A DNA stretch of 64,000 nucleotides from a virus. The stretch is from positions 49,637-113,636 of IMG/VR virus record IMGVR_UViG_3300031673_008942. One strand, written 5' to 3'. Position numbers and translations under genes: made by a program. The notes beneath the pieces are model-generated. The model had not been told where the DNA came from and did no database searches. It saw nothing but the letters and a program-made list of their open reading frames with translations. Below, piece by piece: positions 16,283 through 47,559 of this stretch. The stretch's first letter is position 1, and each line of letters starts with the position of its first letter.

Positions 16283-16706
16283 TATGAAGATGCATAGCCC
16301 AACCCAGGCTATAAAAATGGGTAGTTGTTTTGGTCACTACGATGAAAATGATAAAATTTGTGGTAAGTGTGTGGTAAACGGGGTGAGTTTCCCTTCTCCA
16401 TATTCATGTAATGTTGCTACTGCGAAGAGGCAAAAGGCAGAAAGTGCGGGTGTTGAAGACCTTGAGGACATTGATGCATGGGATTATTTGATGAAGTCCC
16501 TTCAGGGTAGGTTGGATTTATCAATTACTAAAAATGATAAAGCTATCAGTTATGATTTTGCAGCTGATGATGGAACTCACAAAATTCGTGTTATTTCCAT
16601 GATAGGTTCTGAAAGGGTAATGATAATGGCATCTGGCTTCAAGGAGAAGTATGAGAAGTTAGAGTCATTGGAATTTGTGGAGAATATTTTAAAGAAATTG
16701 CTATGA
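16275..16706 (+). CDS. Small protein with N-terminal Cys4 motif
   Basis: A 143-residue protein starting eight bases before the end of the sigma-like gene, with GAGAGG upstream. Near the N-terminus, C-F-G-H-Y-D is followed by C-G-K-C and a further C-N about 13 residues later, four cysteines that could bind a metal. The remainder is a small alpha/beta domain (V-M-I-M-A-S-G-F-K-E-K-Y near residue 115). It overlaps the helicase gene by four bases. No family is recognised. A role in transcription or replication is suggested only by its neighbours. Confidence 0.5.
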   Translation: MSDMKMHSPTQAIKMGSCFGHYDENDKICGKCVVNGVSFPSPYSCNVATAKRQKAESAGVEDLEDIDAWDYLMKSLQGRLDLSITKNDKAISYDFAADDGTHKIRVISMIGSERVMIMASGFKEKYEKLESLEFVENILKKLL

Positions 16707-17617
16707 GGACTGTTAATTATCCTTATTTCCAACCTTCATTTGCAAACTTTAATAAAGCCCAGATAGCCGTTGTTCCTTATTTTGATGAGGATGTTAATTT
16801 GGTTGTGTCTTTTCCCACTGCGGTGGGCAAGACTGTTATCGCAGAATGTTGTTTTGGATACCATTTATCTACAGAGAAGGATAGTCGAGTAGTATATGTC
16901 TCTCCTCTTCGAAGGCTTACTTCTGAAAAATATGAGAATTGGAGTTCTGAGTCACAGTTTTGTGATTATGGAGTAATGCAGAGTACTGGAGAAGACCCTG
17001 CTCCCATGAAAGACTTTGAAAATTCCAGAATATCTTTACTTACGAGTGAGTCTTTTGATTCAAAAACCAGAGTAAAAACATATCGTGAATGGTTAAAGGG
17101 TGTTGCATGTGTGGTTATTGATGAGGCTCATTTGATAGGACATGAGAAGAGGGGAGGTGCTGTTGAGAATGCTTTAATGCGTTTTACTTCCATAAATACT
17201 ACTGCACGATTAATTTTATTATCAGCTACTATGAGTAACTCAATGGAGATTGCTAAATGGATAAAATCTCTTAATGGCAAAGAAACAAAGCATATTAAGA
17301 GTGACTGGCGACCGGTGAAGATAAACCGGGAGTTTTATGAAATACCGGATGGTAACGAGTCAAAGATAAGAGCCGTTGTCGCTCATCTTAAAAAGAGCAA
17401 TTTTACAGGAAAGACGATTGTTTTTGTTCATTCTAAGGCAGTTGGAAAAGAGATTGTGAATAGGTTAAGTAAAGAAAGAATAAAATCGGCTTTTCATAAT
17501 TCTGGTTTAAATAAGAGAAAGCGAGCCGAAATTGAAAAAGAATTTGATGATGCGTATTCAGAATTGAATGTACTGGTTAGTACGAGCACTCTTGGAGCAG
17601 GAGTTAATATAGGATGA
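16703..17617 (+). CDS. Ski2/Hel308-like helicase, N-terminal half (split gene)
   Basis: The 304 residues hold RecA domain 1 and part of domain 2 of a superfamily 2 helicase. Motif I is FPTAVGKT (37-44), motif Ia is V-S-P-L-R-R-L, motif II is DEAH (about 141), motif III is LLSATM (about 172) and motif IV is IVFVHSK. The frame stops in the middle of motif V, just after STSTLGAGVNIG. The missing continuation appears in the same frame at 18188, after a uracil-DNA glycosylase gene. Joined, the sequence reads GAGVNIG-ADRVIITG, which fits the Hel308 motif GVNLPARRVI without gap. This half has no complete second RecA domain and is unlikely to act alone. Confidence 0.88.
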   Translation: MRTVNYPYFQPSFANFNKAQIAVVPYFDEDVNLVVSFPTAVGKTVIAECCFGYHLSTEKDSRVVYVSPLRRLTSEKYENWSSESQFCDYGVMQSTGEDPAPMKDFENSRISLLTSESFDSKTRVKTYREWLKGVACVVIDEAHLIGHEKRGGAVENALMRFTSINTTARLILLSATMSNSMEIAKWIKSLNGKETKHIKSDWRPVKINREFYEIPDGNESKIRAVVAHLKKSNFTGKTIVFVHSKAVGKEIVNRLSKERIKSAFHNSGLNKRKRAEIEKEFDDAYSELNVLVSTSTLGAGVNIG

Positions 17618-18192
17618 ATGATTTAGACATATTAAAAAAAGAATGTTTGGGTTGTACTAAATGTGCAATTGGGGGTGTTCATTTGGATAATGGTCTTTCT
17701 AATGTTTTTTCCAATATGAATATTGATGCTGATATTATGGTAGTGGGTCAGAATCCAGGTTCTGATGAGGTTAAAGGTGCTGAACCTTTTATTGGTGATA
17801 GTGGTAAGTTTTTTGATAAAGTAATGTTGGAAGTTTGTGGCCTTTCAAGAGATGATTTTTATATTTCTAATGTAGTAAGATGCTACACTCCTGGAAATAG
17901 GAAGCCTTATCAAAATGAGATAGATTCCTGTAGGGATTTCCTTGATAAAGAGATTGAATTAGTTAAGCCCAAGTTCATTATAGGTCTTGGAAGTTTTGCT
18001 TTTAAGCAATTAACTGGAATGAGCGGTATTATGAAGCATCATGGAGAATTGGTATTCTCTATTCGATACAAAGTTAATGTTATTCCCTTGTTACATCCAA
18101 GTCCTTTGAATATTCAAAAGGGTGACTGTTTAGGAATGTTCTATGATGATTTAGAGAAGGTCAAATCATATTTGGAGAGTCTAGATGGCTGA
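17614..18192 (+). CDS. Family 4-type uracil-DNA glycosylase (Fe-S) inserted in helicase gene
   Basis: A 192-residue protein with the four cysteines of 4Fe-4S family 4 UDGs: C14-x2-C17, then C90 and C106 with the typical 15-residue spacing. The uracil-pocket motif I is GQNPGSDE (45-52) and the second catalytic motif is HPSP (161-164). It removes uracil from DNA. The gene begins at an ATGA overlap with the first helicase half and ends eight bases into the second half, in a different frame from both. Whole and apparently intact, it accounts for almost exactly the extra DNA that splits the helicase. Confidence 0.9.
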   Translation: MNDLDILKKECLGCTKCAIGGVHLDNGLSNVFSNMNIDADIMVVGQNPGSDEVKGAEPFIGDSGKFFDKVMLEVCGLSRDDFYISNVVRCYTPGNRKPYQNEIDSCRDFLDKEIELVKPKFIIGLGSFAFKQLTGMSGIMKHHGELVFSIRYKVNVIPLLHPSPLNIQKGDCLGMFYDDLEKVKSYLESLDG

Positions 18193-19261
18193 CCGAGTTA
18201 TTATTACTGGTTCTCGGAGGGGAAACGAGGAGGTAACATTGATAGAGCTTGGACAGATGATAGGTCGAGCAGGTAGGGACCAATTTGGTGGTGATGCATA
18301 TGTAGATATTTTCCTTGAAAGGTGTGATTTCCAAAGAGTTGTTTCTCAGATAGATGATAAAAATAGCTTTCTGGTAAATTCTTCTCTGACTGATGAATCT
18401 TTGCTGTTTCATATTTTACCGGATATTAATTCTGGAAAAGTGAGGGATGTAAAAACTGCTAAGGAATGGTTTAAAAGAAGTTTTTTCTATTACCAGAAGG
18501 GTGAAAGGTTGGATATTGAAGATTCCTTGGATGCTTTGGAGAAGATGGGAGCAATATATTTAGAGAATGGATATCTTACAGCTACCGAGGTGGGAAATTT
18601 GTCGGCTCAGTATTACTACCATCCTGATGATATTATAAGTTGGAAGAATAATTTTACGGAATTGTTTGAGAGTTCCTTAGAGGATAATGACTTAGCCATT
18701 TCTTGGGCATTGGGAAATGTTTTATTCAGCTCTACTTATGGTAATTATGGTCAGGACTCGGATGTGGTAGAGGACTGTAAGGGAAGGATGCCGCCTGGCT
18801 TGTATATGCATTCAGGATGTGCTTCTACCATTACTTGTTGGTGGGGGGCTTTGGGTGGTGCTTCGATGGGGAAGATGCGGTCTTCTATGTTGGCATTGAG
18901 GGAGGATTATGGCCGATTGGGGAAAGTGCTTAGGGCATTAAATAAGAAGGTTGGGAAATGGGGTATGGAAGACTTTTTTGATGACTTAGATTATAGGATT
19001 CGTCGCTCTATTCCTATAAGTTTGTTCCAGTTATGTAAAGATATTGGTCTCAGTAAGGGGAGGGCATCTTTTTTATATAATAGAGGCATCCGCTCAGTAG
19101 AGGATTTGGTATATAATATGGATGGATTAGAAGGCGAAATTGATGATGAATTTTATGAAAAATTGAAGAGAGCCAGTGAATTATCAGGAAAGGTTGATAA
19201 AGGATTGCGTGAGAGCGATGCGGGATGGAAGAGTCTCGGACTTGCACGTAACAAGGATTAG
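18185..19261 (+). CDS. Ski2/Hel308-like helicase, C-terminal half (split gene)
   Basis: A 358-residue protein that begins M-ADRVIITG, the second half of helicase motif V, then motif VI QMIGRAGR (24-31), a winged-helix and ratchet-like helical region, and a helix-hairpin-helix at the end (C-K-D-I-G-L-S-K-G-R-A-S-F-L-Y, then I-R-S-V-E-D-L). This is the normal order after motif V in Hel308/Ski2 proteins. Its ATG overlaps the UDG stop by eight bases, so translation is probably coupled. The two halves could assemble as a two-chain helicase, or the gene may be decaying. All key residues seen are intact, which favours function. Confidence 0.88.
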   Translation: MADRVIITGSRRGNEEVTLIELGQMIGRAGRDQFGGDAYVDIFLERCDFQRVVSQIDDKNSFLVNSSLTDESLLFHILPDINSGKVRDVKTAKEWFKRSFFYYQKGERLDIEDSLDALEKMGAIYLENGYLTATEVGNLSAQYYYHPDDIISWKNNFTELFESSLEDNDLAISWALGNVLFSSTYGNYGQDSDVVEDCKGRMPPGLYMHSGCASTITCWWGALGGASMGKMRSSMLALREDYGRLGKVLRALNKKVGKWGMEDFFDDLDYRIRRSIPISLFQLCKDIGLSKGRASFLYNRGIRSVEDLVYNMDGLEGEIDDEFYEKLKRASELSGKVDKGLRESDAGWKSLGLARNKD

Positions 19262-25986: not shown

Positions 25987-27255
25987 ATGAGTGATGATAA
26001 AAACTTGCCTCGTAGTCAATGGGCTACCTCTAAACCAGGAACTGAATCTGAGCCTGTAGTTGAGCCTGTAGTTGAGCCTGTAGTTGAGCCTGTAGTTGAA
26101 GATATTATTAATGATAGTGGGATGGATGATTTTATGATTGATATGCCAGATATCCCTGAGATTGATGATTCATCTGAGCCAACTGGAATCGTTGAAGATG
26201 AGTGTGATACTGCTTTTGATTTTTGTTTTATTGGAACAGGGCAGGGTGGTAGCCGTGTTGCTGAATCTTTCTGGAAGTTAGGGTATCGTCGAGTTTGCTG
26301 TATCAATACAACAAATCAAGACCTTACTGCTATTGATATCCCGGAAGCTAATAAACTTGTTATTGGTGATGGGGGAGCTGGTAAGGAAATGGCAAAAGGC
26401 GAAGAAGCTGCAAGGACAAATTATGAGAATATTTATGATTTGATGAAACGCTGTTTCGGAAAGAAGTTTGATAGGATTTTTGTTTGTATCGGGGCTGGTG
26501 GTGGGACTGGCAGCGGAACAGGTGATACAGTTATCAATATTGCTCATGATATAGCTCAGTCTTCCAAGATAGAGGAAGAAGGTGGAACATCAGCGGTTGG
26601 GGTGATTGCCTCGCTTCCAAAGACTGCTGAAGGAGTAAAGGTTAATGCAAATGCTCACGTTGTTATGGAGAGTTTATTTGCTCAAGCTGATGCAAAGACT
26701 ATCAGTCCATTGGTTATCTTGGATAATGAGAAGATTGGAGAGGTTTTCCCGAATGTGACTGTTAATAAGTTTTGGGATGTGGCTAACCGTAATTTGGCTA
26801 GTTTGTTTAATCTGTTTAATACGATTGCAACTAAGGATAGTCCTTATACTACTTTTGATAGAGCAGACCTGAAAGATATATTGGATGGAGGCACTTTAAG
26901 TTTTGGAGCTTGTCCAATCAAGCAGTGGCAGAAGCTAACGGATATTAGTTTTTCTATTCGTGATAACCTGACCAGAAATGTTTTGGTTGCTGGTTTTGAT
27001 TTTAAGAAGGCTCAAAAAGCTGCTTGTGTTTTTATTGGTCATCCAGATGTGTTGGGCAATATCCCTCAAAATTTCTTAGAACATGGTTTTGAAATGCTTT
27101 CCCGTACAATGGCTGATGACAGTGTTGTTCATCGTGGTATTTACCCCGGTGGTAGAGAAGGGATTGTTGTATATACGATGATGGGAGGCTTAGGTCGTCC
27201 TGAGGAACGGATGAGCGAGATTGCTAAAATAGGCAGAATTAATTCAGGAGAATAA
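25987..27255 (+). CDS. Tubulin/FtsZ-like GTPase
   Basis: A 422-residue protein. Residues 1-75 are an acidic disordered extension, with four PVVE units from a 12-base repeat and D-D-F-M-I-D-M-P. The GTPase domain follows: F-I-G-T-G-Q-G-G-S (about 82-90), N-T-T-N-Q-D-L, and the tubulin signature GGGTGSGTG (about 171-179). Then comes a core helix region with N-L-F-N-T-I, and a C-terminal domain ending in G-G-L-G-R-P-E-E-R-M. Phage tubulins such as PhuZ and TubZ polymerise to position DNA or the phage nucleus. Which subfamily this is cannot be settled by eye. No nucleus-shell homologue was recognised in this window. Confidence 0.8.
   Translation: MSDDKNLPRSQWATSKPGTESEPVVEPVVEPVVEPVVEDIINDSGMDDFMIDMPDIPEIDDSSEPTGIVEDECDTAFDFCFIGTGQGGSRVAESFWKLGYRRVCCINTTNQDLTAIDIPEANKLVIGDGGAGKEMAKGEEAARTNYENIYDLMKRCFGKKFDRIFVCIGAGGGTGSGTGDTVINIAHDIAQSSKIEEEGGTSAVGVIASLPKTAEGVKVNANAHVVMESLFAQADAKTISPLVILDNEKIGEVFPNVTVNKFWDVANRNLASLFNLFNTIATKDSPYTTFDRADLKDILDGGTLSFGACPIKQWQKLTDISFSIRDNLTRNVLVAGFDFKKAQKAACVFIGHPDVLGNIPQNFLEHGFEMLSRTMADDSVVHRGIYPGGREGIVVYTMMGGLGRPEERMSEIAKIGRINSGE
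26050..26097 (+). repeat. Twelve-base coding repeat GAGCCTGTAGTT, four units
   Basis: Four perfect in-frame units encode E-P-V-V in the acidic N-terminal extension of the tubulin-like protein. Confidence 0.8.
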
Positions 27256-36526: not shown

Positions 36527-36687
36527 ATTTCACGAATCATAAAACGGAATATTTGATGGAGATGCTTAAAGCAATTAATTCGAGCAGGCATCCATTTGTA
36601 AGCAGGAAGAGCGATATAATAAAAGAATTGAAAAGGAGAGTGCCTCCAGGGTGCCTATTGGTGACGAATAATGAAAGACAAAACTGA
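36523..36687 (+). CDS. Small 54-residue ORF between paralogous glycosyltransferases
   Basis: An ATG overlapping the previous stop (ATGA) opens 54 codons: M-N-F-T-N-H-K-T-E-Y, a helical E-M-L-K-A-I, a basic K-E-L-K-R-R and a final N-E-R-Q-N. It fills the gap between the two paralogues and overlaps the next gene by 17 bases. AAGGG lies two bases upstream, which is too close for a good site. It may be a real short protein or just open sequence. No homologue is suggested. Confidence 0.3.
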   Translation: MNFTNHKTEYLMEMLKAINSSRHPFVSRKSDIIKELKRRVPPGCLLVTNNERQN

Positions 36688-37594
36688 TGTAATAATAGCT
36701 TATAGCAATGGAACGGCAGATATGTTGGATATTTGCTTGTCTAACCTATTTAAATATACCGATGAAGAAGAGATTGAGGTTGTAATCGTTCATGATGAGA
36801 GAGAAGATTTTGATGCTTTAGTGGATGATTATTCGGTATCTGTAAAAAGCTATCCTGTATCTGAAAGGGGTTTAAGTGGGGCGAAGGCTCATGGAACCCT
36901 TATAGATGCTGCGGTGGCTGATACTTCTAATGCTTACATACTTACATTGGACTCTGACTGTTTCCCTATTGCTACGGGGTGGTTGGATTGTTTGCATAGT
37001 TTTATCTGTGAGAGTATGGGAGATACGCCAGTGTCTGGTATCTGCCATCCTTGGGCTCCTCCTCCTGAAGAATTAAAGAAAAGTCATATTGAATGGCGTA
37101 TTCGGTCAGGACATTGTTGGCTTAATACTCATGTGGCTTGCCAATTGGTTCTAAGGTCTTTCTTAGAGGATAATGGGTTAAAGTATTGTGCTGGCGATGA
37201 TACTGGTTTGGAAATTCCCATGAAGGCTCGTGAGATGGGTTTTGATGTGGGTATAATGCTGCCAACAAATTGTGTTCTGCCTAATGGGGAATATGTGAAA
37301 AGATTCAATCCAGAGCTTAATCGTCATGTTGGTATAATTTGGGGTGACTATATTTATCACCATGGTGGGGTTACCAGGAAGGTGAATGATTGTACTGTTG
37401 ATATGGAGACTGTATTCTCGAATGCTCTGGAGCAGGTAGTTAAGAGACGTGGGGCTGCTTGGCTGCATGATGAGAAGGAAAGTTCTCATTGGTATACTTT
37501 TGAGAATGAAGAAGCTGTGGCAGATTATAAGATGGAGTTAATGAAGCCTCAGATAATTAACTATTTAACTAATAATCAGAGTTTATTTAAATGA
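36671..37594 (+). CDS. GT-A glycosyltransferase (second of tandem pair)
   Basis: A 307-residue paralogue of the gene at 35609. It carries the same L-D-S-D-C-F-P, H-P-W-A-P-P-P, T-H-V-A-C-Q, G-D-D-T-G-L-E-I-P and I-Y-H-H-G-G-V-T-R motifs in the same order. The region after the core differs. Both begin with a short beta-alpha pair and a D-x-D metal site like family 2 transferases. Two copies side by side suggest either sequential addition of like sugars or different acceptors. It overlaps the methyltransferase gene by four bases. Confidence 0.7.
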   Translation: MKDKTDVIIAYSNGTADMLDICLSNLFKYTDEEEIEVVIVHDEREDFDALVDDYSVSVKSYPVSERGLSGAKAHGTLIDAAVADTSNAYILTLDSDCFPIATGWLDCLHSFICESMGDTPVSGICHPWAPPPEELKKSHIEWRIRSGHCWLNTHVACQLVLRSFLEDNGLKYCAGDDTGLEIPMKAREMGFDVGIMLPTNCVLPNGEYVKRFNPELNRHVGIIWGDYIYHHGGVTRKVNDCTVDMETVFSNALEQVVKRRGAAWLHDEKESSHWYTFENEEAVADYKMELMKPQIINYLTNNQSLFK

Positions 37595-38319
37595 TAAAGT
37601 TGGCACGGGGCGATTGCCTAGAGAAGATGAAAGGTATCCCTGACGGTAAAATAGATATGGTCTTATGCGACCCTCCTTATGGGGTGACTAGTTGCAAGTG
37701 GGATTCGGTTATACCGTTGGCCCCAATGTGGAGAGAACTAAAAAGAGTGGTTAAGCCGAGTGGGGCGATTGTTTTACATGCTTCACAGCCTTTTACAACG
37801 ACTTTGGTGGGTTCTAATAAGGAGATGTTCAAATATGGATGGATATGGCTCAAGAATGTTCCTACGGGAATGGCGCAGGCATCTTATCAGCCTATGAAGT
37901 ATCATGAAGAATTATTAGTGTTTGTTCAGTCTGGGAAGCCTACTTTTAACAAGCAGATGATTGAGCGTGAGGGGGAACGTAAGGATTGTTATCGTTATGA
38001 GCATTATTGTGGTGAGAACAATCATGTAAAGATGGATAAAGTGAAGAAACATTATGACCCAGACTTTGTTAATCCTGGTACAGTGTTGCTTTTCAATTGT
38101 GTTCCGAATAGAAAGGGGAAATTACATCCGGTTGAGAAACCAGTTCCCTTGTTGGAATATATGATTAAGACCTATACCAATGAAGGGGATGTTGTTTTAG
38201 ATTTTGCAATGGGTAGCGGTTCTACGGGAGTTGCTGCTGTGGGGAATAATAGAAGCTTTATTGGTATAGAATTAGATGATGAATATTTTAAGATAGCAAA
38301 AGAGAGGATAAGTCCATGA
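37591..38319 (+). CDS. DNA amino-methyltransferase (DPPY, N4/N6 type)
   Basis: A 242-residue protein with catalytic motif IV D-P-P-Y near residue 31 and SAM-binding motif I F-A-M-G-S-G-S-T-G near residue 207. Motif IV before motif I is the beta-class order. Target recognition lies between. It methylates adenine N6 or cytosine N4, probably shielding phage DNA from restriction, and no nuclease partner is adjacent. Embedded in sugar genes, it is not obviously related to them. It starts at an ATGA overlap. Confidence 0.85.
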   Translation: MIKLARGDCLEKMKGIPDGKIDMVLCDPPYGVTSCKWDSVIPLAPMWRELKRVVKPSGAIVLHASQPFTTTLVGSNKEMFKYGWIWLKNVPTGMAQASYQPMKYHEELLVFVQSGKPTFNKQMIEREGERKDCYRYEHYCGENNHVKMDKVKKHYDPDFVNPGTVLLFNCVPNRKGKLHPVEKPVPLLEYMIKTYTNEGDVVLDFAMGSGSTGVAAVGNNRSFIGIELDDEYFKIAKERISP

Positions 38320-39029
38320 AGGGAATAATTTTAGCGGGTGGTACAGGGTCTCGTTTAATGCCATTGACCAAGGTTACGAATAAGCACTTATTGCCGATTG
38401 GTGGCAAGCCTATGTTGCAACATTGTGTAGATAAACTTGTTGGAGCAAATGTTGACGAGATAATGGTTGTTACAGGGGGCGAGCACATCGGTCATATTGC
38501 TGAGTTCCTTGGAAGTGGTAAGGATTTTGATTGCAATGTGACTTATCGCATTCAGGATAGGGCAGGCGGTATTGCGGAGGCTTTAGGGTTGGCGAGAGGG
38601 TTTATCTCTAAGGGCGAAAGCATGATAGTTTTATTGGGTGATAACGTCTTTGAGGATGAGCTTTCAGATTTTGTTATGTTCCATGAATTGAATGGAGGGG
38701 CTACCTTGATGTTGAAGGAGGTGGATGACCCTGAGCGTTTTGGAGTAGCTGAGATTGATGGCAAGAACCATGTTCTTTCTATTGAGGAAAAGCCAGATAG
38801 TCCTAAGAGTAATATGGCGGTGACGGGTATTTATTGTTATGACGATAATGTTTTTGACTATATTGATGGTCTGACTCCAAGTGAAAGAAACGAGTTGGAG
38901 ATAACGGATGTTAATAATATGTACGTCAAAGATGGAAGAGTTAATTTTATGAAGTTTAATGGGTGGTGGACGGATGCAGGAACTCATGAGAGTTATGCTA
39001 AGGCAAATGAACTAATAAGAGGAAAATGA
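38316..39029 (+). CDS. RmlA-like sugar-1-phosphate nucleotidyltransferase
   Basis: A 237-residue protein that begins with G-I-I-L-A-G-G-T-G-S-R-L, the nucleotide-binding signature, then L-P-I-G-G-K-P-M-L and L-L-G-D-N-V-F for the metal. These are the hallmarks of glucose-1-phosphate thymidylyl/uridylyltransferases. It would make an activated sugar donor for the transferases around it. RmlA proper is longer (about 290 residues), so substrate is uncertain. It overlaps both neighbours by four bases. Confidence 0.85.
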   Translation: MKGIILAGGTGSRLMPLTKVTNKHLLPIGGKPMLQHCVDKLVGANVDEIMVVTGGEHIGHIAEFLGSGKDFDCNVTYRIQDRAGGIAEALGLARGFISKGESMIVLLGDNVFEDELSDFVMFHELNGGATLMLKEVDDPERFGVAEIDGKNHVLSIEEKPDSPKSNMAVTGIYCYDDNVFDYIDGLTPSERNELEITDVNNMYVKDGRVNFMKFNGWWTDAGTHESYAKANELIRGK

Positions 39030-39664
39030 AAATGGAAATATTAAAGTTATTAGATGATTATGTGCCCACTGCTACGAGCACAGAGAGCGTTGTCAGAATG
39101 CAATTGGAGCGTCCTGTTAAGGGTGAAGATGGTAATATCGGTGATTGGAAGAAAGAGGATGTTAATGCACGTTTCTTACATGGAGCAATTGGGCTTGTTA
39201 CAGAAACGGGAGAGCTTGAGGAGTCAATATATAAAGCGAAATGGAACAAGGAAAAATGGGACACCGTGAATGTCATAGAGGAATGTGGTGACGTGATTTG
39301 GTATCTGGCTATCGTTGTAGATTCGCTTGGGTTATCTTTTGTAGGCTTGGATGTTCAAAGTGCATGGATTGATAAAAATATTGCGATTAGCAGGATGATT
39401 ATATCGGCAGACCAAATTATTGACAAGGCAAAGAGAAATATCTTTTATGGAAAGCCTCTTGAAGAGGATGCTGTAAAGAGAGAACTCGGAAATCTAATTG
39501 GAGCTATGGATTGTTTATGCAAGCATGCTGATGGAAGTATCGAGCAGGCGATTGACAAGGTTACTTATAAGCTTACGAAGGTTCGCTTTAAGGATGGTTT
39601 TAATCAGGAAGATGCCTACAATCGTGATTTGAAAGAAGAGCGTGATGCACTAGAAAGCAAGTAA
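39026..39664 (+). CDS. MazG-like NTP pyrophosphohydrolase
   Basis: A 212-residue protein with the MazG metal motif: T-E-T-G-E-L-E-E-S, then N-V-I-E-E-C-G-D-V-I-W-Y-L (E-x3-E plus E-E-x2-D). Phage MazG proteins hydrolyse nucleotides, and cyanophage MazG has been linked to host starvation signalling. The part after residue 120 is helical and is probably a second partial repeat. The function of the enzyme within a sugar island is not clear. It may balance nucleotide pools. Confidence 0.75.
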   Translation: MKMEILKLLDDYVPTATSTESVVRMQLERPVKGEDGNIGDWKKEDVNARFLHGAIGLVTETGELEESIYKAKWNKEKWDTVNVIEECGDVIWYLAIVVDSLGLSFVGLDVQSAWIDKNIAISRMIISADQIIDKAKRNIFYGKPLEEDAVKRELGNLIGAMDCLCKHADGSIEQAIDKVTYKLTKVRFKDGFNQEDAYNRDLKEERDALESK

Positions 39665-39692
39665 AATTAACTTATAGGAAGATTATTTTACA

Positions 39693-40394
39693 ATGAATGG
39701 TATAAGCATATGCGTTCTTACATATAATGTATTGTTTTATAACAAGTTGCAACTTAAACAAGTGCGTGAGCTTACTCGCTTAATGCCTTATGAGTTGATA
39801 TTTTATGATAATGGCAGCACTGATGGGTCGGTTGAATATCTGGAGTCTCAGGAAGATGTGAGGCTTATTAAGGGTACGAATAATTCACTGAGGCATGGTG
39901 AGGCACTTGATGTATTGGCAAAAGAGTCTAAATATCCTATTACGTGTACTTTAGATTCTGATGCTTTCCCTATGAGTCCAGATTGGCTCACGCCTGCTTT
40001 TTTCTTGGATGATGATTGTGTGCTTGCTGGTATTGATAGAGGATGGGGCAGGCAGTTCCATCATTATGTGTGCCCTTCTTATCTGTTTGGATGGACTGAT
40101 TGGATAAAGAAGCATACGTTCGCTGATACGTGGCCGACGGCTGATACTGGAGAATTGATGGGTAAGGCATGCGTTGAAGAGGGAAAGCACCAGAAGCTGT
40201 GGAAATATAGTTGTACCGACTGGGGGGATAAATTTAAATCAAATAAACCGAATAACTATAATGGATGGGTTTGGCATACTTGGTGGGGAGGTCGTTCCAA
40301 ATCTATTCCTGGATTGGCTGGTGATGAATTTGAGGTTGATTATCACGATTATGTTGAAAATATGTTAAGAAGAAAGTTTAATTTGGATTTTTAG
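39693..40394 (+). CDS. Family 2 glycosyltransferase
   Basis: A 233-residue GT-A protein: S-I-C-V-L-T-Y-N, then F-Y-D-N-G-S-T-D-G-S, and L-D-S-D-A-F-P (D-x-D) near residue 90. The C-terminal half is Trp-rich (N-G-W-V-W-H-T-W-W-G-G) and should hold the acceptor site. Upstream is a GGAAG site. AGGAGG between this gene and the next shows continued translation through the island. Confidence 0.8.
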   Translation: MNGISICVLTYNVLFYNKLQLKQVRELTRLMPYELIFYDNGSTDGSVEYLESQEDVRLIKGTNNSLRHGEALDVLAKESKYPITCTLDSDAFPMSPDWLTPAFFLDDDCVLAGIDRGWGRQFHHYVCPSYLFGWTDWIKKHTFADTWPTADTGELMGKACVEEGKHQKLWKYSCTDWGDKFKSNKPNNYNGWVWHTWWGGRSKSIPGLAGDEFEVDYHDYVENMLRRKFNLDF

Positions 40395-40403
40395 GAGGTT
40401 TTT

Positions 40404-41336
40404 ATGAATGCCGTGTTGTTGCCTTTAACGGAAGAATGGGTTGTTGCTGAGATGGTTGGCAAAAAATTAAGTGTTGGCATCAATAATCTTCCCACTCCTG
40501 ATGTGGAGATAATGGGTTTTGCGATTCTTGGTGATGGGGGTTCTATGGAATCTGACGTGGCTTCCAAATGGGAGGTGACAGATAGCGTTTTGGAGCTTCA
40601 GGATGAGAGAGGTAAGGTAATTTACCGATTTAGTGGAGCTCTGGCTTCTAATGGAAGTCTATTTTTGAGTGGGGATTCTCTGAGGGATGCGAGCTTGAAT
40701 GGTTTCACTCGGACGATTATGTATCCTTTTGTTTCAGTTGGGGATAATTTTGGAGTATTGGTTAGCTCTCATGCCGACTATTACCAGAATGGGCCGGTAG
40801 ATTTATTGATTACATCATTGATTCGCCATGGTATATCTGAAGAACGTATTCGAGTGGTGGTGGCAGGAAGCAGGGATGATAGCGAAGAGGAACAGCCTGG
40901 ACACCTTCACATAGAGGGTAATCATTTTGGATTTAGCGGATTGAGTGGGTTGGATGATTCTTATCCATATTGGATGCTGTTGCATGATACCTGTGAGGTA
41001 ATGGGTGATTTTAAGGAGAAGTCTTCTTTGATAGATGTCGGATTGAATTATGATTCAATTCTTTTCACTCCAGAGAAGCATAATGGGGTGGGTTTATATC
41101 GAACTGATTTTGTAAATGAAATTAATTGGAGTGAGGTAAGAGGAGACCGATTATTTGACCACATAAAGAATTCATCTAAGCTGAGAATGTTATTGGGAGG
41201 TCGTGCGAATAGTGGTATGGCTTCGCAAGGGAAAAGAGATGTGTATGGAAATGGAACTCTGAGGAAGGTGTTCTATTTAGAAAGTATTGGTATAAAGAAA
41301 TATTCGTCGGATTCATTGACGGTAAAGGCTCCATAA
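40404..41336 (+). CDS. Unassigned protein of sugar island, possibly transferase-like
   Basis: A 310-residue protein with AGGAGG before the ATG. The middle (V-D-L-L-I-T-S-L-I-R-H-G-I, later P-Y-W-M-L-L-H-D-T-C-E-V) is reminiscent of a Rossmann-like core with an H-D-T-x motif where GT-A proteins put their metal site, but no diagnostic motif is present. The first 100 residues are beta-rich. It is one base from the cytidylyltransferase gene, so it is likely part of the same pathway. Confidence 0.4.
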   Translation: MNAVLLPLTEEWVVAEMVGKKLSVGINNLPTPDVEIMGFAILGDGGSMESDVASKWEVTDSVLELQDERGKVIYRFSGALASNGSLFLSGDSLRDASLNGFTRTIMYPFVSVGDNFGVLVSSHADYYQNGPVDLLITSLIRHGISEERIRVVVAGSRDDSEEEQPGHLHIEGNHFGFSGLSGLDDSYPYWMLLHDTCEVMGDFKEKSSLIDVGLNYDSILFTPEKHNGVGLYRTDFVNEINWSEVRGDRLFDHIKNSSKLRMLLGGRANSGMASQGKRDVYGNGTLRKVFYLESIGIKKYSSDSLTVKAP

Positions 41337-41756
41337 ATGGTGGTTACTTGTAATGGTTGTTTTGATGTGTTGCATTCGGGGCATTTATTTTTTCTTGGGT
41401 ATGCATTGAGTCGAGGTACATCTCTTGTTGTGGGTATCAATTCTGATGATTATATTCGTCGAACTAAGCGTCTTGATTTTATTCCTCAAGAAATTCGTCG
41501 GGAAAATCTCTTAAGTTTGGGCTTTATAAAGACTGTAGAGATTTTTGAGGAGGATTCTCCAATAGAGTTTATTCGTAGAATTCGTCCTAATATTCACTGT
41601 ACAGGTGTAGAATATAGTGAAAACTGTGCAGAGACCCAAGTATGTGATGAGTTGGGTATAGAACTCGTATTTATTCCACGAGTTGGCGACTGGTCTACAA
41701 CTTCAATAAGAGAGAAGCAGAATGCAGGAAACGACAAAGGCTTACCTGAGACGTAA
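41337..41756 (+). CDS. Cytidylyltransferase-like (HldE C-terminal/TagD type)
   Basis: A 139-residue protein of the nucleotidyltransferase alpha/beta fold: N-G-C-F-D-V-L-H-S-G-H (the H-x-G-H motif) at the start, and S-T-T-S-I-R-E-K near the end, like the I-S-S-T-x-x-R motif. Such enzymes link CMP or AMP to sugar or polyol phosphates (heptose-1-P, glycerol-3-P). It could make a CDP- or ADP-activated donor for the GT9-like transferases nearby. It overlaps the next gene by 35 bases. Confidence 0.8.
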   Translation: MVVTCNGCFDVLHSGHLFFLGYALSRGTSLVVGINSDDYIRRTKRLDFIPQEIRRENLLSLGFIKTVEIFEEDSPIEFIRRIRPNIHCTGVEYSENCAETQVCDELGIELVFIPRVGDWSTTSIREKQNAGNDKGLPET

Positions 41757-43707
41757 GAATGATAAATTTTGGGACAGAGTTTTCAAGGGTAATGGTATTG
41801 ACATAGGCTCTGGAGATGACCCGTTTAAAGAAGAATGGTTTACTGGTATTAAATCTATCAAGCCTTTTGACTTAGAGGATGGGGATGCTCAATTCTTATC
41901 TCGGTATGTAGGTTCTGAATCCTTTGACTTCGTACATAGTTCGAATTGTTTAGAGCATATGCATGACCCTGTGGGAGCTCTTTCGGAATGGTGCGAGGTT
42001 CTTAAGCCAAATGGATATTTGGTTTTTACAGTTCCTGATGAAGATTTATACGAGCAGGGTATTTTCCCTTCGAGATGGAATGGAGACCATAAAGTAAGCT
42101 TTACGATATGGAAGAATGATTCTTGGTGTGATAAGTCTATGAATATTTCTGAGCTTGTTTCTCAGGTTCCGGGAATGCAGGTAAAAAAGATTGAACTTGT
42201 TGATACTAATTATGATTATTCCAGAAAGAATTATGACCAGACTTACCATTCGAATGCGGAATGTTTCATTGAGGTGGTGCTTTGGAAGAATCCGGTATTG
42301 GCTTATGAGAGAGTGGGGACAAAAGAGATTGAGAGAACGTTCAAACATAGTGGGGCTCGTGGTGATTTGATTTATGGATTATGTGCGATGAAGGCACTTG
42401 GAGGTGGAGAGCTGTATATTAATCTTGATGCCAAACATCATTATGTAGGAGTGGGAATTGATGAGAATGATGTGAAGTGGTTTAAGGAGCTTTTAATATC
42501 TCATGATTACGTGGATGATGTCCAAGTTTGGGATGGCCGAGATGTTGGATACGATTTGGATAATTTCAGAGATTTTGATATTGATGCCAATTTGTTGAGC
42601 TGGTCTCATCTTAATCGTTTCAAGGCAGAGGCAGATTTGAGTTTGCCTTGGTTGGAGATGGATAAGATTCCTAAAATTTATGAAGGGGATATCGTTATTT
42701 CTCGAAGTGCGAGATATCATGGTTTCTTGGATTGGGGCGAATTAAAGGGATGGGAGGATAGATGTGTGTTTATTGGTATGCAGGAAGAGTGGGAGGATTT
42801 TAGAAAGAATGTAGGGCTTCATATTCAGTATCGTCCCGTTTCGAGTTATATAGAGATGGCAGGAATTATAGCTGCCTCGAAGCTGTTTATCGGAAATCAG
42901 TCTTTCCCCTATAGTTTGGCAGAAGCGATGAAGGCAAATCGAGTTTTAGAGGTATGCATCTCTTGTCCTAACTGTGACCCTCAAAGTGATAATGGACATG
43001 TAAGATTGACTCAGAATATTCTTAATCACTATGTGGTTAAAGAGAGGGAACTGAAAGAATTTGAGAAAGAGACTCGTAGTCATAATCCTTGGAAGTTGAG
43101 CAAGGTTAGGGTGCCAGTAATGCAGAAGCCCGGTTTATGGGAAAGGATAAAATCCCCTCAGCAGTTGAAAGACCGTCCCTTGGTGAGCGTTGTGGTTTGT
43201 GCTCTGATAGGTAAAGAGGATGATATTCAATTTATGGATAAAAATATTAATGATTGTGACTTGATTAAGTTTTTACAGAAAGATAGGGATTTGGAGGAGT
43301 CTGTTATTGCGATGGGAACGATTAAAACATTAGCCACTAATATTAATAATGCAGCTTTACTGGCGAACGGTGATTATATTGCGATTGTGGATGCAAATAC
43401 TACTCTTTCCCCTGGATGGTCAAGTGATATGAGAGATTGCTTTGTGGATGAGAGCGTAGGAATTGTTGGTACTGAACGTTCTTTCAAAAAAACTCCTCAT
43501 ATGAAATTTGGGTGTTTGATGATTGCGAGAAGGGCCTATGAGGCATGTGGATTATTTTCAACAAAAATTGATGATTGGAATGAGCAGGCTTTAGACTTGG
43601 CAGTGAGATATGGGAAACAGGGATATGGTTCTCGACAATCTTCGGACCGGTCTATTGAGATTAGCTCTCATATAAAAGAGTACTATGAGGTCAAAAATGA
43701 TTATTAA
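41722..43707 (+). CDS. Three-domain fusion: SAM methyltransferase, GT9-like, GT2-like
   Basis: A 661-residue protein. Residues 1-190 are a class I SAM methyltransferase (G-I-D-I-G-S-G-D-D-P, later H-S-S-N-C-L-E-H-M, L-K-P-N-G-Y-L-V-F-T-V-P). Residues about 200-440 resemble GT-B heptosyltransferase-like proteins (G-A-R-G-D-L-I-Y-G-L, later F-I-G-N-Q-S-F-P-Y-S-L-A-E-A). The last 170 residues are a GT2-like GT-A domain (I-A-I-V-D-A-N-T-T-L, with a rare D-A-N metal site). Such a fusion would methylate and transfer in one chain, with the activities perhaps capping a glycan. It overlaps neighbouring genes on both sides. Confidence 0.72.
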   Translation: MQETTKAYLRRKNDKFWDRVFKGNGIDIGSGDDPFKEEWFTGIKSIKPFDLEDGDAQFLSRYVGSESFDFVHSSNCLEHMHDPVGALSEWCEVLKPNGYLVFTVPDEDLYEQGIFPSRWNGDHKVSFTIWKNDSWCDKSMNISELVSQVPGMQVKKIELVDTNYDYSRKNYDQTYHSNAECFIEVVLWKNPVLAYERVGTKEIERTFKHSGARGDLIYGLCAMKALGGGELYINLDAKHHYVGVGIDENDVKWFKELLISHDYVDDVQVWDGRDVGYDLDNFRDFDIDANLLSWSHLNRFKAEADLSLPWLEMDKIPKIYEGDIVISRSARYHGFLDWGELKGWEDRCVFIGMQEEWEDFRKNVGLHIQYRPVSSYIEMAGIIAASKLFIGNQSFPYSLAEAMKANRVLEVCISCPNCDPQSDNGHVRLTQNILNHYVVKERELKEFEKETRSHNPWKLSKVRVPVMQKPGLWERIKSPQQLKDRPLVSVVVCALIGKEDDIQFMDKNINDCDLIKFLQKDRDLEESVIAMGTIKTLATNINNAALLANGDYIAIVDANTTLSPGWSSDMRDCFVDESVGIVGTERSFKKTPHMKFGCLMIARRAYEACGLFSTKIDDWNEQALDLAVRYGKQGYGSRQSSDRSIEISSHIKEYYEVKNDY

Positions 43708-44431
43708 ACTGTCGGGTGGCTTAGATAGGGTTTTGATGTTAGCTCCGGTATTGCGTGAGTATAAATTTAGAAATCCTTATGAGAAGATTTATTTTGAGAC
43801 TGACTATCCTTTGTTCACTTGTGAGGAGGCAGATAAGGCAGCGGTGTTTATTGACCGAAAAGATGAGTCTGTCTTGGTGTTGGATATTTTTAATGAAATT
43901 TCTGAGGATATGCATATTATGGACTTATATGCGAGTATAATTTTGGGAGATACTCGGATTCGGAATAGGATGATTGATAATATCCCTTATTTAAATAATC
44001 TCAGAAAGGTGGCTTCCCCTAATATTGTTATTGATTCACGTTTTGTTAAAATGGTCCCTGACTTGGAGAAGTACGGAAAAGTAGAGGTGGCAGAATATCA
44101 TAACAGTGGTTTGGATAATATCCTTTTTATAGGTTATGATGATGACCTTTCTTATCTGGCAATGACTTCGAATACTCCCATGATAATGATATTTGACAAA
44201 AGGTCTCCCAAGTATGTAAGGCCTTTTAGGAAGAATATCTTTTTTGAAGCAATAGAACCATCTTATGAGGTATGCTCGTCGGCTCCATTTTGTTTACGTA
44301 AGAATGGATTGATTGAGTTTAAAAATGTATATGGGGTTAAGTGTGATAATGAGACTCCTTTTGCCTGTGAGAATTATGTGACTTATGAGATGGTTATGGA
44401 GTCGGTGAAAAGGATATTACATGAATGTTGA
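43697..44431 (+). CDS. GT9/heptosyltransferase-like protein, reduced
   Basis: From ATG 43697 (GAGG six bases upstream; 43685 also possible) the product has 244 residues. It begins I-I-K-L-S-G-G-L-D-R-V-L-M-L-A-P, like the start of heptosyltransferases (L-G-D-x-L-x-T-P). The later E-x-G-x-H region typical of GT9 is not clear, so it may be a partial or unusual member. C-terminal Cys residues (V-C-S-S-A-P-F-C, later V-K-C-D) are notable. Overlaps the previous gene by 11 bases. Confidence 0.5.
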   Translation: MIIKLSGGLDRVLMLAPVLREYKFRNPYEKIYFETDYPLFTCEEADKAAVFIDRKDESVLVLDIFNEISEDMHIMDLYASIILGDTRIRNRMIDNIPYLNNLRKVASPNIVIDSRFVKMVPDLEKYGKVEVAEYHNSGLDNILFIGYDDDLSYLAMTSNTPMIMIFDKRSPKYVRPFRKNIFFEAIEPSYEVCSSAPFCLRKNGLIEFKNVYGVKCDNETPFACENYVTYEMVMESVKRILHEC

Positions 44432-45182
44432 CTGGGAGTATAATTCAGTCAGCGTTGTCTTGGCTTCTTATAATCAAGTGAGAACATTGCCCTTAGTATT
44501 GGAATCTCTTAACCGACAATACTGCCCACCTATTGAGGTTATTGTGAGCGACGATGGCTCGACAGATGAGACTATTGATTATTTGGATACTATTCCTGAT
44601 GATAAGTTTAATTTTGATTTGCGTTATGTGTTGGGTAAGCATGTTGGTTATAATTTGGTTGGGGTTAATAATAGAGGGTCTGCCCAGGCAAAAGGCTATC
44701 GTATTCTCTTTACTAATTCAGATATAATTCACTCCCCAAGCTCGGTTTGTTCGCATGGTAGCTTGGGTCCAGAGTATATTGGAGGGGGTTTTATAAATGG
44801 CATATCTCTTCCTATGTCAAATGAGGTAAAGCTTAAGGATGTGGAGAATTTTGGTATTGTGGAGGATATGAGTAGGAGATTTCCTCCTAAAATGACTAAC
44901 ATTGATTATTTCAGAGGGCCGGCAGAGGCTGGGTTTTATGGCGTATGGGGTGGAAATTATTCTGTCCCAAAATGGATGTGGAAGGCGATTAATGGTTTCA
45001 ACGAAGGGTATAAAATGCTATATGGCGGAGAGGAAGCTGATTTTATTCAGCGTTCTCGTAAGATTGCCGGTGCCAAAGTAGAATGGGCTAAGGATTCAGA
45101 GTCTTTTCATTTGGAGCACGAGCCAAGGACATATAGGAAATTAGCGAAAGGCAATGACAAATATAGGAAAGAGTATTTATGA
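44421..45182 (+). CDS. Family 2 glycosyltransferase
   Basis: A 253-residue GT-A protein with S-V-V-L-A-S-Y-N-Q, S-D-D-G-S-T-D-E-T near 45, F-T-N-S-D (the D-x-D position) near 97, and W-G-G-N-Y-S-V-P-K later, which marks the acceptor loop. It resembles the last domain of the 766-residue protein at 50966 (same V-W-G-G-N-x-S-V-P), so they are related. ATGA overlap with the next gene. Confidence 0.8.
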   Translation: MNVDWEYNSVSVVLASYNQVRTLPLVLESLNRQYCPPIEVIVSDDGSTDETIDYLDTIPDDKFNFDLRYVLGKHVGYNLVGVNNRGSAQAKGYRILFTNSDIIHSPSSVCSHGSLGPEYIGGGFINGISLPMSNEVKLKDVENFGIVEDMSRRFPPKMTNIDYFRGPAEAGFYGVWGGNYSVPKWMWKAINGFNEGYKMLYGGEEADFIQRSRKIAGAKVEWAKDSESFHLEHEPRTYRKLAKGNDKYRKEYL

Positions 45183-45589
45183 ACACTATAAAAATATCCT
45201 CCTCTAATAAGGAAGCTCGTTTGCCTGATGGTAATCCTTTCAAGTTTTATGTTTTAGATGACATAAAGATTTATGGTAGCGAGTCAACGGTTATCCCTGT
45301 GGGTTATACTTTTGACGTTGGTAGGTCTCACACTCTTATTGTTGAGTCTTTAAGACCTGACTTGATAATAGTTGACTATGTGAAATTGGTCGATGAGATT
45401 GGGATTGTAGTTCAGGCAGTGGAATATCTTCAGGTTGAGCTGAATAAGGATGAGCCATTTGCTACAGGGAGGATTGTCGAAACTCCTCTTGTTAAGTTGA
45501 GGTTTGCGGTATTTAATGAAGAGAATAAGCGTAAAATATTTGGAGGAGTATCTAAAATTGAAAATAGTGATTCAAAAACAGACCAGTAG
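45179..45589 (+). CDS. Possible dUTPase-like beta-barrel protein
   Basis: A 136-residue, strand-rich protein. A-R-L-P-D-G-N at residues 13-19, V-I-P-V-G-Y-T-F-D-V, an E-I-G-I-V-V-Q strand and P-F-A-T-G-R-I-V follow the spacing of trimeric dUTPases (A-x-L-P, p-x-G, kG-x-I-A), but the usual catalytic Asp and Tyr motifs are not evident. It might be a nucleotide-binding or structural barrel. It overlaps the next gene by 32 bases. Confidence 0.35.
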   Translation: MNTIKISSSNKEARLPDGNPFKFYVLDDIKIYGSESTVIPVGYTFDVGRSHTLIVESLRPDLIIVDYVKLVDEIGIVVQAVEYLQVELNKDEPFATGRIVETPLVKLRFAVFNEENKRKIFGGVSKIENSDSKTDQ

Positions 45590-46343
45590 TCCAGAGTCTT
45601 CATTCATAGAGAAGACATTGGAAGATGCTGTGGTCTTCAATCAATATGAGAAATTGGCTCATTGCGAATATTATGATGTGGCTGTGTGTCTTGGACCTGT
45701 AAGGCAACGTCCAAGAGCTAAAAAATCTATTCTCTTTGTTTTTGGAGAGACTATGTTGCATCATGACCTAGAGTGGGACTTGGTGGTGGTTACATGCCGA
45801 AAAGCATTTAAGAATGCGATGAGGGTTTTTGGCCATAAGTGTAAAGTTGTTATTGCCGCTCCTGCATTGGCTGATTTACATATGGGGCAAAGACGTATTG
45901 TAGGTCAAAACCGATTTGGGCTGTATGCAGGAGCAAGAATATTTAAAGATGTTGTGTATCAAATGAACCTGTGGGATAATTCTAATCACATAGATTTGCA
46001 GACATTTAATATTAAATCTAGAGTTCCGGGAATGGAATGTGCTCTTAATATTGAGATTTATAATAGTTTGGAGTTTAACAGCTTGGTGAGAGGGGGAGCA
46101 GTCGGCATTTACCCTTCTTGTATGGATGATGGATATGATATTCAGGTTAGAAGGCATTTGGCCCTTGGTGGGGCTGTGGCATGCCCTAAGGATGCGGAAG
46201 TGATTGGAGAATTAGTGGATGTTGTTTATGACATTAATGATGTCATTCATTTTGAAAAGGTTGAAAGGAGAGAAGGTAGATTGGAAGAAGTGGCTTCAAT
46301 CTCTTTATATTCTGACCTAATAAAAGAAATAGTAGGCTTATAG
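45558..46343 (+). CDS. GT-B-like glycosyltransferase, TTG start
   Basis: GGAGGAG at 45542 lies nine bases before TTG 45558, a better start than the ATGs upstream, giving 261 residues. The chain has a GT-B look: an early V-A-V-C-L-G-P-V-R, a middle R-F-G-L-Y-A-G-A-R, and a late I-Y-P-S-C-M-D-D-G-Y-D-I-Q-V-R-R-H-L-A-L-G-G-A-V, where a GT1/GT4-type E-x7-E site would lie. Family cannot be fixed. A TTG start within an overlap suggests low-level, coupled translation. Confidence 0.5.
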   Translation: MKIVIQKQTSSPESSFIEKTLEDAVVFNQYEKLAHCEYYDVAVCLGPVRQRPRAKKSILFVFGETMLHHDLEWDLVVVTCRKAFKNAMRVFGHKCKVVIAAPALADLHMGQRRIVGQNRFGLYAGARIFKDVVYQMNLWDNSNHIDLQTFNIKSRVPGMECALNIEIYNSLEFNSLVRGGAVGIYPSCMDDGYDIQVRRHLALGGAVACPKDAEVIGELVDVVYDINDVIHFEKVERREGRLEEVASISLYSDLIKEIVGL

Positions 46344-47558
46344 ATGGCAGGGAATTTACCAATAGTATGTATATTTGGAGTGGAGAATATTGAACTTGAG
46401 TCCTTGGGACCGGTTGCTCATTTTGAGACAACAAAATTAGATTGTCGGTGTTATCTCACTGATGATAATCTCCATTCTATTCTGGCAAAGGTGAGACCTG
46501 ATGTGATTGTGAGTTTTGGAGAAATGTTAGATTTCCCCAATTTGACTAATTCTCAGTATGATGTTCGTAAAAGGTGGATTAATTTTGAAGATACCCAAGG
46601 GCTAGCAGATAAAGGCATGAAAACTTTTTGGTGCTATATCAGGAATGCGGTTGAAGAGCAAAAAGATTTTCCATTGGTTAGTGTTTTTACGCCTGCTTAT
46701 AAAACCGGTGATAAGATAATGCGTCCGTATCATTCTCTTATTGCCCAGACGTATTCGAACTGGGAGTGGGTTATTATTGATGATTCTGATGATGATGGGG
46801 AAACATGGGAGATGCTTCAAGCCCTCTCTAATAAGGATGGGCGTATTCGTATAATTCGAGAGAAAGCTCATTGTGGAGTTATTGGGAAACTTAAGAGACT
46901 GGCATGTAAAATGTCTGAGGGAGAGTATTTGGTAGAGCTAGACCATGACGATGAGTTGCTTCCTCATGCATTGGACTATGTTGTAAAGGCATATCAAAAA
47001 TATCCTGAGGTCGGCTTTGTATATACGGATTTTGCAGAATCTTTTGAGGATGGTAGTGTGGTGACTTATGGCGACAATTGGGGGTTTGGCTATGGAAGCT
47101 ATCGTGAGGAAAGGCACAATGGAGTGAAGTATATGGTGGTTAATGCACCTAATATTAATCCTAAGACCATTCGACACATTGTAGCAGCTCCTAATCATAT
47201 TCGGTCATGGAGGGCGACATCTTATTGGGAGATTGGTGGACATTCCTCCAGGATTCATGTAGCAGATGATTACGAGATAATGGTGAGGACATTTTTAGGT
47301 ACTCGAATGTGTCGAGTACCTCGTATGTGCTATATCCAATATCGCAATGAAGGCGGAAATACCCACAAAGTTAGGAATCAAGAGATTCAGAGATTGGTGA
47401 GGTATTTTTCCAATTGGTATAATGAGGCTATTCATCAACGTTTTATTCAGTTAGGGGTGAATGACTTTGTTTATGAAGGCGACAAGACTTGGATTAATTT
47501 GAATCAGGTCATTAACCCTAAAGAGGAACCTCATTGTACGATACTGGCAGATATTTGA
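46344..47558 (+). CDS. Family 2 glycosyltransferase with N-terminal extension
   Basis: A 404-residue protein. The first 110 residues are a small Rossmann-like domain (V-C-I-F-G-V-E). The GT-A domain begins with S-V-F-T-P-A-Y-K-T, W-V-I-I-D-D-S-D-D-D and L-D-H-D-D-E-L-L (the D-x-D, near residue 204). The C-terminal part has R-M-C-Y-I-Q-Y-R-N-E and may close on the acceptor. ATG follows directly on the preceding stop. Confidence 0.82.
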   Translation: MAGNLPIVCIFGVENIELESLGPVAHFETTKLDCRCYLTDDNLHSILAKVRPDVIVSFGEMLDFPNLTNSQYDVRKRWINFEDTQGLADKGMKTFWCYIRNAVEEQKDFPLVSVFTPAYKTGDKIMRPYHSLIAQTYSNWEWVIIDDSDDDGETWEMLQALSNKDGRIRIIREKAHCGVIGKLKRLACKMSEGEYLVELDHDDELLPHALDYVVKAYQKYPEVGFVYTDFAESFEDGSVVTYGDNWGFGYGSYREERHNGVKYMVVNAPNINPKTIRHIVAAPNHIRSWRATSYWEIGGHSSRIHVADDYEIMVRTFLGTRMCRVPRMCYIQYRNEGGNTHKVRNQEIQRLVRYFSNWYNEAIHQRFIQLGVNDFVYEGDKTWINLNQVINPKEEPHCTILADI

Positions 47559-47559
47559 T

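What the first reader, a model, noticed from the sequence alone, without database searches (positions are those of the whole stretch)
16703..19261. Ski2/Hel308-like helicase split in two by a uracil-DNA glycosylase gene
The upstream ORF ends within helicase motif V (G-A-G-V-N-I-G) and the downstream ORF resumes with A-D-R-V-I-I-T-G, in the same frame. The gap is 573 bases (17615-18187), a multiple of three, and holds little beyond a complete Fe-S UDG in another frame. The join fits the family motif GVNLPARRVI without loss or gain of residues. All key motifs of both halves are intact, which argues against simple decay. The three genes overlap (4 and 8 bases), so they may be translated together and the two chains may assemble into a helicase. 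Short matches TAGGATG and TAGATGG flank the insertion. It could also be a host-repair gene captured by chance.
Basis: partly seen in the sequence, partly recalled or inferred. Interest (0 to 1): 0.82.

Follow-up and report, generated by a model that had tools for sequence, protein, structure and literature searches.

The report
Conserved two-piece phage Hel308-like helicase
A DNA-unwinding enzyme of a group of large viruses of microbes is encoded as two separate chains with a DNA-repair gene (a uracil-DNA glycosylase) sitting in the break; the broken arrangement is conserved in at least ten related viruses, so it is very likely a working two-part enzyme, and one relative still carries in the break a homing-endonuclease-like gene of the kind that probably cut the gene in two.

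Summary
Window 16703-17617 and 18185-19261 are the two halves of one Hel308-type helicase, split inside motif V, with a complete Fe-S uracil-DNA glycosylase (17614-18192) between them. An intact 675-aa homologue (LR756511.1) aligns across the junction with nothing missing. Nine further viral contigs carry the same N-half/UDG order in the same neighbourhood, eight with the C-half too. They form one clade (100/100) apart from intact phage and archaeal Hel308. Helicase motifs are kept, dN/dS is 0.05-0.10, and the C-half has its own start and usually a Shine-Dalgarno site, so decay is excluded. Two substitutions at the new ends (P to G, R to D) are fixed in the split clade. The earliest-branching member (L034) reads N-half, DUF559/VSR-like homing-type endonuclease, UDG, C-half. 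A distant relative (L015) has a similar endonuclease alone at this site; another (L016) an intein within a few codons. Best reading: a homing endonuclease broke the helicase at motif V, the UDG settled there, the endonuclease was later lost, and the halves assemble as two chains: a new variant of phage genes-in-pieces (Aeh1 nrdA). Assembly and activity are inferred. The multiple-of-three gap and short flanking matches are not conserved.

The parts
16703..17617 (+). N-terminal half of the Hel308-type helicase (304 aa): RecA1 and most of RecA2, motifs I to V, ends GVNIG*
   Evidence: Pfam DEAD 3e-24 and Helicase_C 1.9e-9; AlphaFold2 mean pLDDT 90; conserved in 9 split relatives at 46-53% id
17579..17614 (+). 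motif V STSTLGAGVNIG, where the break lies; G replaces the P that 17/17 intact phage copies and 71/71 readable archaeal Hel308 copies have
   Evidence: alignment, diagnostic columns, archaeal copies
17614..17617 (+). ATGA overlap: stop of the N-half and start of the UDG (translational coupling)
   Evidence: sequence; same 4-base overlap in L020 and, with the endonuclease start, in L015 and L034
17614..18192 (+). Fe-S uracil-DNA glycosylase (192 aa); cysteines C11, C14, C90, C106; motifs GQNPG and HPSPLN
   Evidence: Pfam UDG 2.6e-32; phmmer to family-4 UDG structures 4zbx 6e-27 and 1ui0 6e-25; present in all 10 split lineages
18174..18179 (+). Shine-Dalgarno-like GGAGAG, 5 bases before the C-half start, inside the end of the UDG gene
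   Evidence: sequence; duplex energy better than 84% of ATGs in the locus
18185..18192 (+). ATGGCTGA overlap: start of the C-half and stop of the UDG
   Evidence: sequence; 8-base overlaps of the same shape in L015 and L034
18185..19261 (+). C-terminal half of the helicase (358 aa): end of RecA2 with motif VI QMIGRAGR, winged helix, ratchet helices, HhH domain
   Evidence: phmmer to Hel308 9b15 1.2e-8; AlphaFold2 mean pLDDT 86; Foldseek top hits Hel308, E 1.5e-10, about 350 columns

Best explanation
Window 16703-19261 is an operon segment for a two-chain Hel308-type DNA helicase with a UDG gene lodged between the two chains. In the ancestor of this phage clade a DUF559/VSR-like homing endonuclease probably inserted at the conserved motif V codons and split the gene (inferred). 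A UDG gene came to lie beside the endonuclease (seen in L034). The endonuclease was then lost in most lineages while the UDG stayed. The N-half, UDG and C-half are translated one after another through stop/start overlaps and a Shine-Dalgarno site before the C-half (seen in the sequence; use inferred). The break is in the loop after the motif V strand of RecA2, so the C-half supplies the last strand and the motif VI helix, and the two chains close RecA2 non-covalently to give an active enzyme (inferred). The UDG most likely acts separately in uracil repair.
For: Continuous alignment with intact homologues. Same split with UDG in 9 further viral contigs from at least 8 metagenome datasets, in a largely conserved gene neighbourhood (sigma-70-like upstream, HEAT-repeat and two unknown genes downstream). 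Split clade 100/100, separated from intact phage copies, with archaeal Hel308 as outgroup. All helicase motifs kept in both halves. dN/dS 0.052 (N), 0.070 (UDG), 0.095 (C) for L021/L039. Two substitutions exactly at the new termini fixed in the clade, P to G and R to D. C-half starts have Shine-Dalgarno sites, among the best 16% of ATGs in their locus in 7 of 9 lineages. The earliest branch L034 holds a DUF559 endonuclease (E 9e-11) plus UDG in the break. L015 has a related endonuclease alone at the same site and L016 an intein about 3 codons upstream. The split-clade UDGs are one clade, 100/100.
Against: No experiment shows that the chains meet or unwind DNA. The endonuclease is seen in only one of ten split lineages and could have arrived after the split. 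L015 groups with the intact copies (although one clade of all splits is not rejected, AU p=0.099), so it may be a separate event. The endonuclease's homing activity is inferred from family and position only. dN/dS rests on one pair with high dS.
Confidence: 0.75

Rival explanations
1. The UDG gene itself was inserted into the helicase by chance recombination and made the split; the endonuclease in L034 is a later visitor to an already open site.
For: UDG is in all 10 split lineages, the endonuclease in one. Other genes come and go at the site: a 92-aa ORF in L021/L039, a 131-142-aa ORF in L039/L033, three small ORFs in L025.
Against: UDG has no known way to insert itself. L034 is the earliest branch (100/99 for the rest). 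An endonuclease without UDG sits at the same site in L015 and an intein next to it in L016, so this site is a target of homing elements.
Confidence: 0.25
2. Decaying pseudogene: the two ORFs are remnants.
For: A break inside a core motif would normally kill the enzyme (general knowledge; no tool result supports decay here).
Against: Both halves are intact and conserved at 37-53% identity in the split relatives, motif VI is kept, dN/dS 0.05-0.10, the split clade is old and diverse.
Confidence: 0.02
3. The pieces are rejoined: intron splicing, ribosome bypass, or protein trans-splicing.
For: Inteins and introns do interrupt such genes; relatives of this helicase carry inteins in motif V (L016) and in Walker A (L012).
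Against: No Rfam intron match in the window or in L006, L012, L015, L016. The halves end and start at the junction with no intein pieces. The gap varies from 570 to 1417 nt over all three frames. The C-half has its own start and usually a Shine-Dalgarno site.
Confidence: 0.03
4. The halves no longer form a helicase: each has taken a separate role.
For: The C-half carries complete winged-helix, ratchet and HhH domains that could bind DNA alone; in L025 the N-half is separated from UDG by three genes and its C-half is not on the 15-kb fragment.
Against: Motif VI in the C-half only makes sense with the ATP site in the N-half, and both are kept in every lineage where both halves are seen.
Confidence: 0.12

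Closest known systems
Aeromonas phage Aeh1 nrdA split by mobE (Friedrich et al. 2007, as reviewed in PMC2988022)
   Same: A conserved phage enzyme gene cut at a critical region into two intact coding regions; two chains that assemble to a functional enzyme; start/stop overlaps are typical of such endonuclease ORFs
   Different: Here the insert is a DNA-repair gene, not an endonuclease (except in L034 and L015); the enzyme is a Hel308-type helicase; the split is conserved over a wide clade; assembly is not yet tested
T4 gene 39/60 topoisomerase (mobA) and Aeromonas phage 25/44RR gene 43A/43B (PMC2988022)
   Same: Split phage replication enzymes whose separate chains act together; 44RR shows a split whose insert is not an endonuclease
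   Different: Those inserts are endonucleases or an untranslated spacer, here a conserved UDG gene
Archaeal Hel308 (PDB 2p6r, 2va8, 2zj8, 9b15)
   Same: Motifs and domain order of the joined halves; best sequence and fold matches of the C-half alone
   Different: Single chain; P and R of the motif V loop are replaced by G and D in the split clade
Fractured genes with split inteins and VSR-like endonucleases (Dassa et al. 2009, from memory)
   Same: A DUF559/VSR-like free-standing endonuclease in a split phage gene (L015, L034)
   Different: No split-intein pieces flank the break

Membership tests
Hel308-type SF2 helicase | Two RecA domains with motifs I, II, III, V, VI | tested here: met
   Pfam DEAD and Helicase_C; motifs across both halves
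Hel308-type SF2 helicase | Winged helix, ratchet helices and HhH domain after RecA2 | tested here: met
   C-half: phmmer to Hel308 structures, AlphaFold2 and Foldseek, Hel308 top hits over about 350 columns
Hel308-type SF2 helicase | Single polypeptide | tested here: not met
   Two ORFs separated by UDG
Hel308-type SF2 helicase | ATP-dependent 3'-5' DNA unwinding | not testable with these tools
   needs purified protein
Phage genes-in-pieces (Aeh1 nrdA type) | Uninterrupted homologue in related phages, halves complete | tested here: met
Phage genes-in-pieces (Aeh1 nrdA type) | Homing endonuclease gene in the break | tested here: not met
   Not in the window (UDG only); met in relatives L034 and L015 by DUF559/MTES_1575 similarity and position
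Phage genes-in-pieces (Aeh1 nrdA type) | The chains assemble to an active enzyme | not testable with these tools
   inferred from conservation only
Split intein / fractured gene | Intein N and C pieces fused to the halves | tested here: not met
   N-half ends GVNIG*, C-half starts MADRVI; intein seen only in L016 as a single chain
Group I or II intron | Catalytic intron RNA around the insert | tested here: not met
   No Rfam match at gathering threshold
Family 4 Fe-S UDG | Four cluster cysteines and overall fold | tested here: met
   Cysteines C11, C14, C90, C106 invariant; family-4 structures are best hits
Family 4 Fe-S UDG | Motif 1 GE[A/G]PG | tested here: not met
   GQNPG in all 10 split-clade UDGs; GE[A/G]PG in the six other phage UDGs compared

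The most novel reading that the evidence does not exclude
The split was kept because it is useful: N-half, UDG and C-half, made from one coupled message, assemble into a three-protein repair machine in which the glycosylase is physically tied to a Hel308-type helicase, so that uracil removal and unwinding are linked.
Probability: 0.12. Interest if true: 0.85.

Novelty: new variant of a known kind. Interest (0 to 1): 0.63.

Why it matters
It appears to be a natural, stable fission of an SF2 helicase inside a catalytic motif, and its relatives offer a series: intact, intein, endonuclease-only split, endonuclease plus UDG, UDG only, then more genes accumulating. Such a series shows how a selfish insertion can be turned into a permanent two-subunit enzyme and how its site can be taken over by a useful gene. 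It gives a direct test of whether RecA2 can be closed in trans and of whether the P-to-G and R-to-D changes at the new ends make that possible. Annotation pipelines would call the C-half a protein of unknown function (no Pfam match).

Tried and rejected
Intron: no Rfam match. Split intein: none at the junction. Ribosome bypass or in-frame meaning of the gap: the length varies from 570 to 1417 nt and the frame is not kept. Target-site duplication TAGGATG/TAGATGG: not conserved, considered chance. Assembly artefact: excluded by relatives from many datasets. Single-protein scans of viral contigs with P0001 and P0003 found nothing; profiles of two or more sequences were needed. A DNA search of phages found nothing. 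A search for a C-half in the L025 contig found none, but the contig is a 15-kb fragment. YN00 dN/dS failed on most saturated pairs, so only one pair gives usable values for all three genes. The genome-contig scan returned only cellular archaeal Hel308-type genes, no provirus. A literature search for UDG with homing endonuclease, helicase and split found no report of this case.

Full report
OBSERVATION. The N-half carries Pfam DEAD and Helicase_C, the middle ORF is a UDG (E=2.6e-32), and the C-half has no Pfam match at all. Taken alone, the C-half matches Hel308 structures (9b15 E=1.2e-8; 2p6r E=2.1e-7), and its AlphaFold2 model (mean pLDDT 86) has Hel308 as the top Foldseek hits over about 350 columns (rmsd is high, probably because domain angles differ). 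The joined halves align end to end with the intact 675-aa helicase of phage LR756511.1 (E=1e-96, 32% identity), with GVNIG/ADRVII lying on GLNLP/ARRVVI and nothing lost at the junction.

THE SPLIT IS CONSERVED. The window lies in a 113.6-kb virus record. Profile searches of IMG/VR found more members. Split with UDG in the break: L006, L020, L021, L023, L031, L033, L034, L039 (with near copy L044), and L025, in which the C-half is not on the 15-kb contig. The neighbourhood is largely the same (sigma-70-like gene and a small gene upstream, HEAT-repeat gene and two unknown genes downstream). Intact relatives are many (L001, L005, L007-L011, L013, L018, L019, L045-L055). A tree of the joined halves puts all split-with-UDG members in one clade with 100/100 support, with archaeal Hel308 as outgroup, and L034 as the first branch inside it.

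NOT DECAY. Motifs I, II, III, V and VI are kept in every member where they can be read, with small variations. For L021/L039, NG86 dN/dS is 0.052 (N), 0.070 (UDG) and 0.095 (C) (dS is 1.4-2.1, so these are approximate). Only eight alignment columns distinguish the split clade cleanly from intact copies, and two of them are exactly at the new ends: P to G and R to D. All 71 readable archaeal Hel308 copies have P there and 70 of 71 have PAR. C-half starts have Shine-Dalgarno-like sites that beat 84% or more of the ATGs of their locus in 7 of 9 split lineages.

HOW IT AROSE. Three further facts point to homing elements at this site. First, L034, the earliest branch, has between the N-half and the UDG a 284-290-aa ORF with zinc-finger-like repeats and a DUF559 (VSR-like) nuclease domain, E=9e-11. 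Second, L015, a helicase that groups with the intact copies, is split at the same place by a related endonuclease ORF without UDG, with the same ATGA and 8-base overlaps. Third, L016 carries a 430-aa intein with a LAGLIDADG domain about three codons upstream, while its close relative L018 is uninterrupted; L012 has a 348-aa intein in Walker A. A relative of the L034 endonuclease in Mycobacterium phage Camster lies between two ORFs annotated as DNA methylase. The split-clade UDGs are themselves one clade (100/100), apart from the stand-alone UDGs of LR756511 and other phages, so UDG and split have most likely been inherited together. The site has kept collecting genes: a 92-aa ORF in L021 and L039, a 131-142-aa ORF in L039 and L033 with a decayed trace in L031, and three small ORFs in L025.

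MECHANISM. Shown: two separate ORFs, coupled starts, conserved motifs, clade-wide conservation. Inferred: the chains meet and close RecA2. The N-half model ends just after the motif V strand (E290-294) and the C-half model begins with the next strand (E4-8) followed by the motif VI helix, so the break is in a loop and the C-half would complement the sheet. This matches phage precedents in which split chains were shown to work: Aeh1 NrdA, and the gene 43A/43B products of phage 25 (review PMC2988022).

COMPARISON AND NOVELTY. Split phage genes with endonucleases in the break are known, also in huge gut phages (PMC12363816). What I did not find reported (and the limits of that library apply) is a Hel308-type helicase stably split across a whole phage clade with a DNA-repair gene in the break, together with a relative that still holds an endonuclease beside that gene. 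I therefore call it a new variant of a known kind. That the UDG works as part of the helicase is possible but unsupported beyond its constant position.

Noticed in passing
window 17614-18192 and UDGs of L006, L020, L021, L023, L025, L031, L033, L034, L039: The split-clade UDGs all have GQNPG and HPSPxN active-site motifs with the Fe-S cysteines kept, whereas the six other phage UDGs compared have GE[A/G]PG; possibly a distinct UDG subfamily.
   Followed up: partly
L012:3789-6869: Hel308-type phage helicase with a 348-aa intein-like insert in Walker A (GK|T).
   Followed up: partly
L016:4881-8234 against L018:4929-6944: A 430-aa LAGLIDADG intein in motif V and a close intein-free copy.
   Followed up: partly
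L039:4613-5008, L033:6455-6883, L031:6532-6687: An unknown 131-142-aa ORF between UDG and C-half, with a decayed trace in L031 (MTSDEYDRWFG).
   Followed up: partly
L146 (Mycobacterium phage Camster) 1501-2256: A relative of the L034 endonuclease lies between two ORFs annotated DNA methylase; the annotated strand is opposite to the match.
   Followed up: no
window 25987-27255: Tubulin/FtsZ-like (TubZ-like) protein.
   Followed up: no
window 36671-53266: Long run of glycosyltransferases, a nucleotidyltransferase and methyltransferases (surface polysaccharide or DNA modification cluster).
   Followed up: no
window 55336-56703 and 57387-58160: SMC/RecN-like AAA ATPase followed by a PD-(D/E)XK Cas4-like nuclease.
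   Followed up: no
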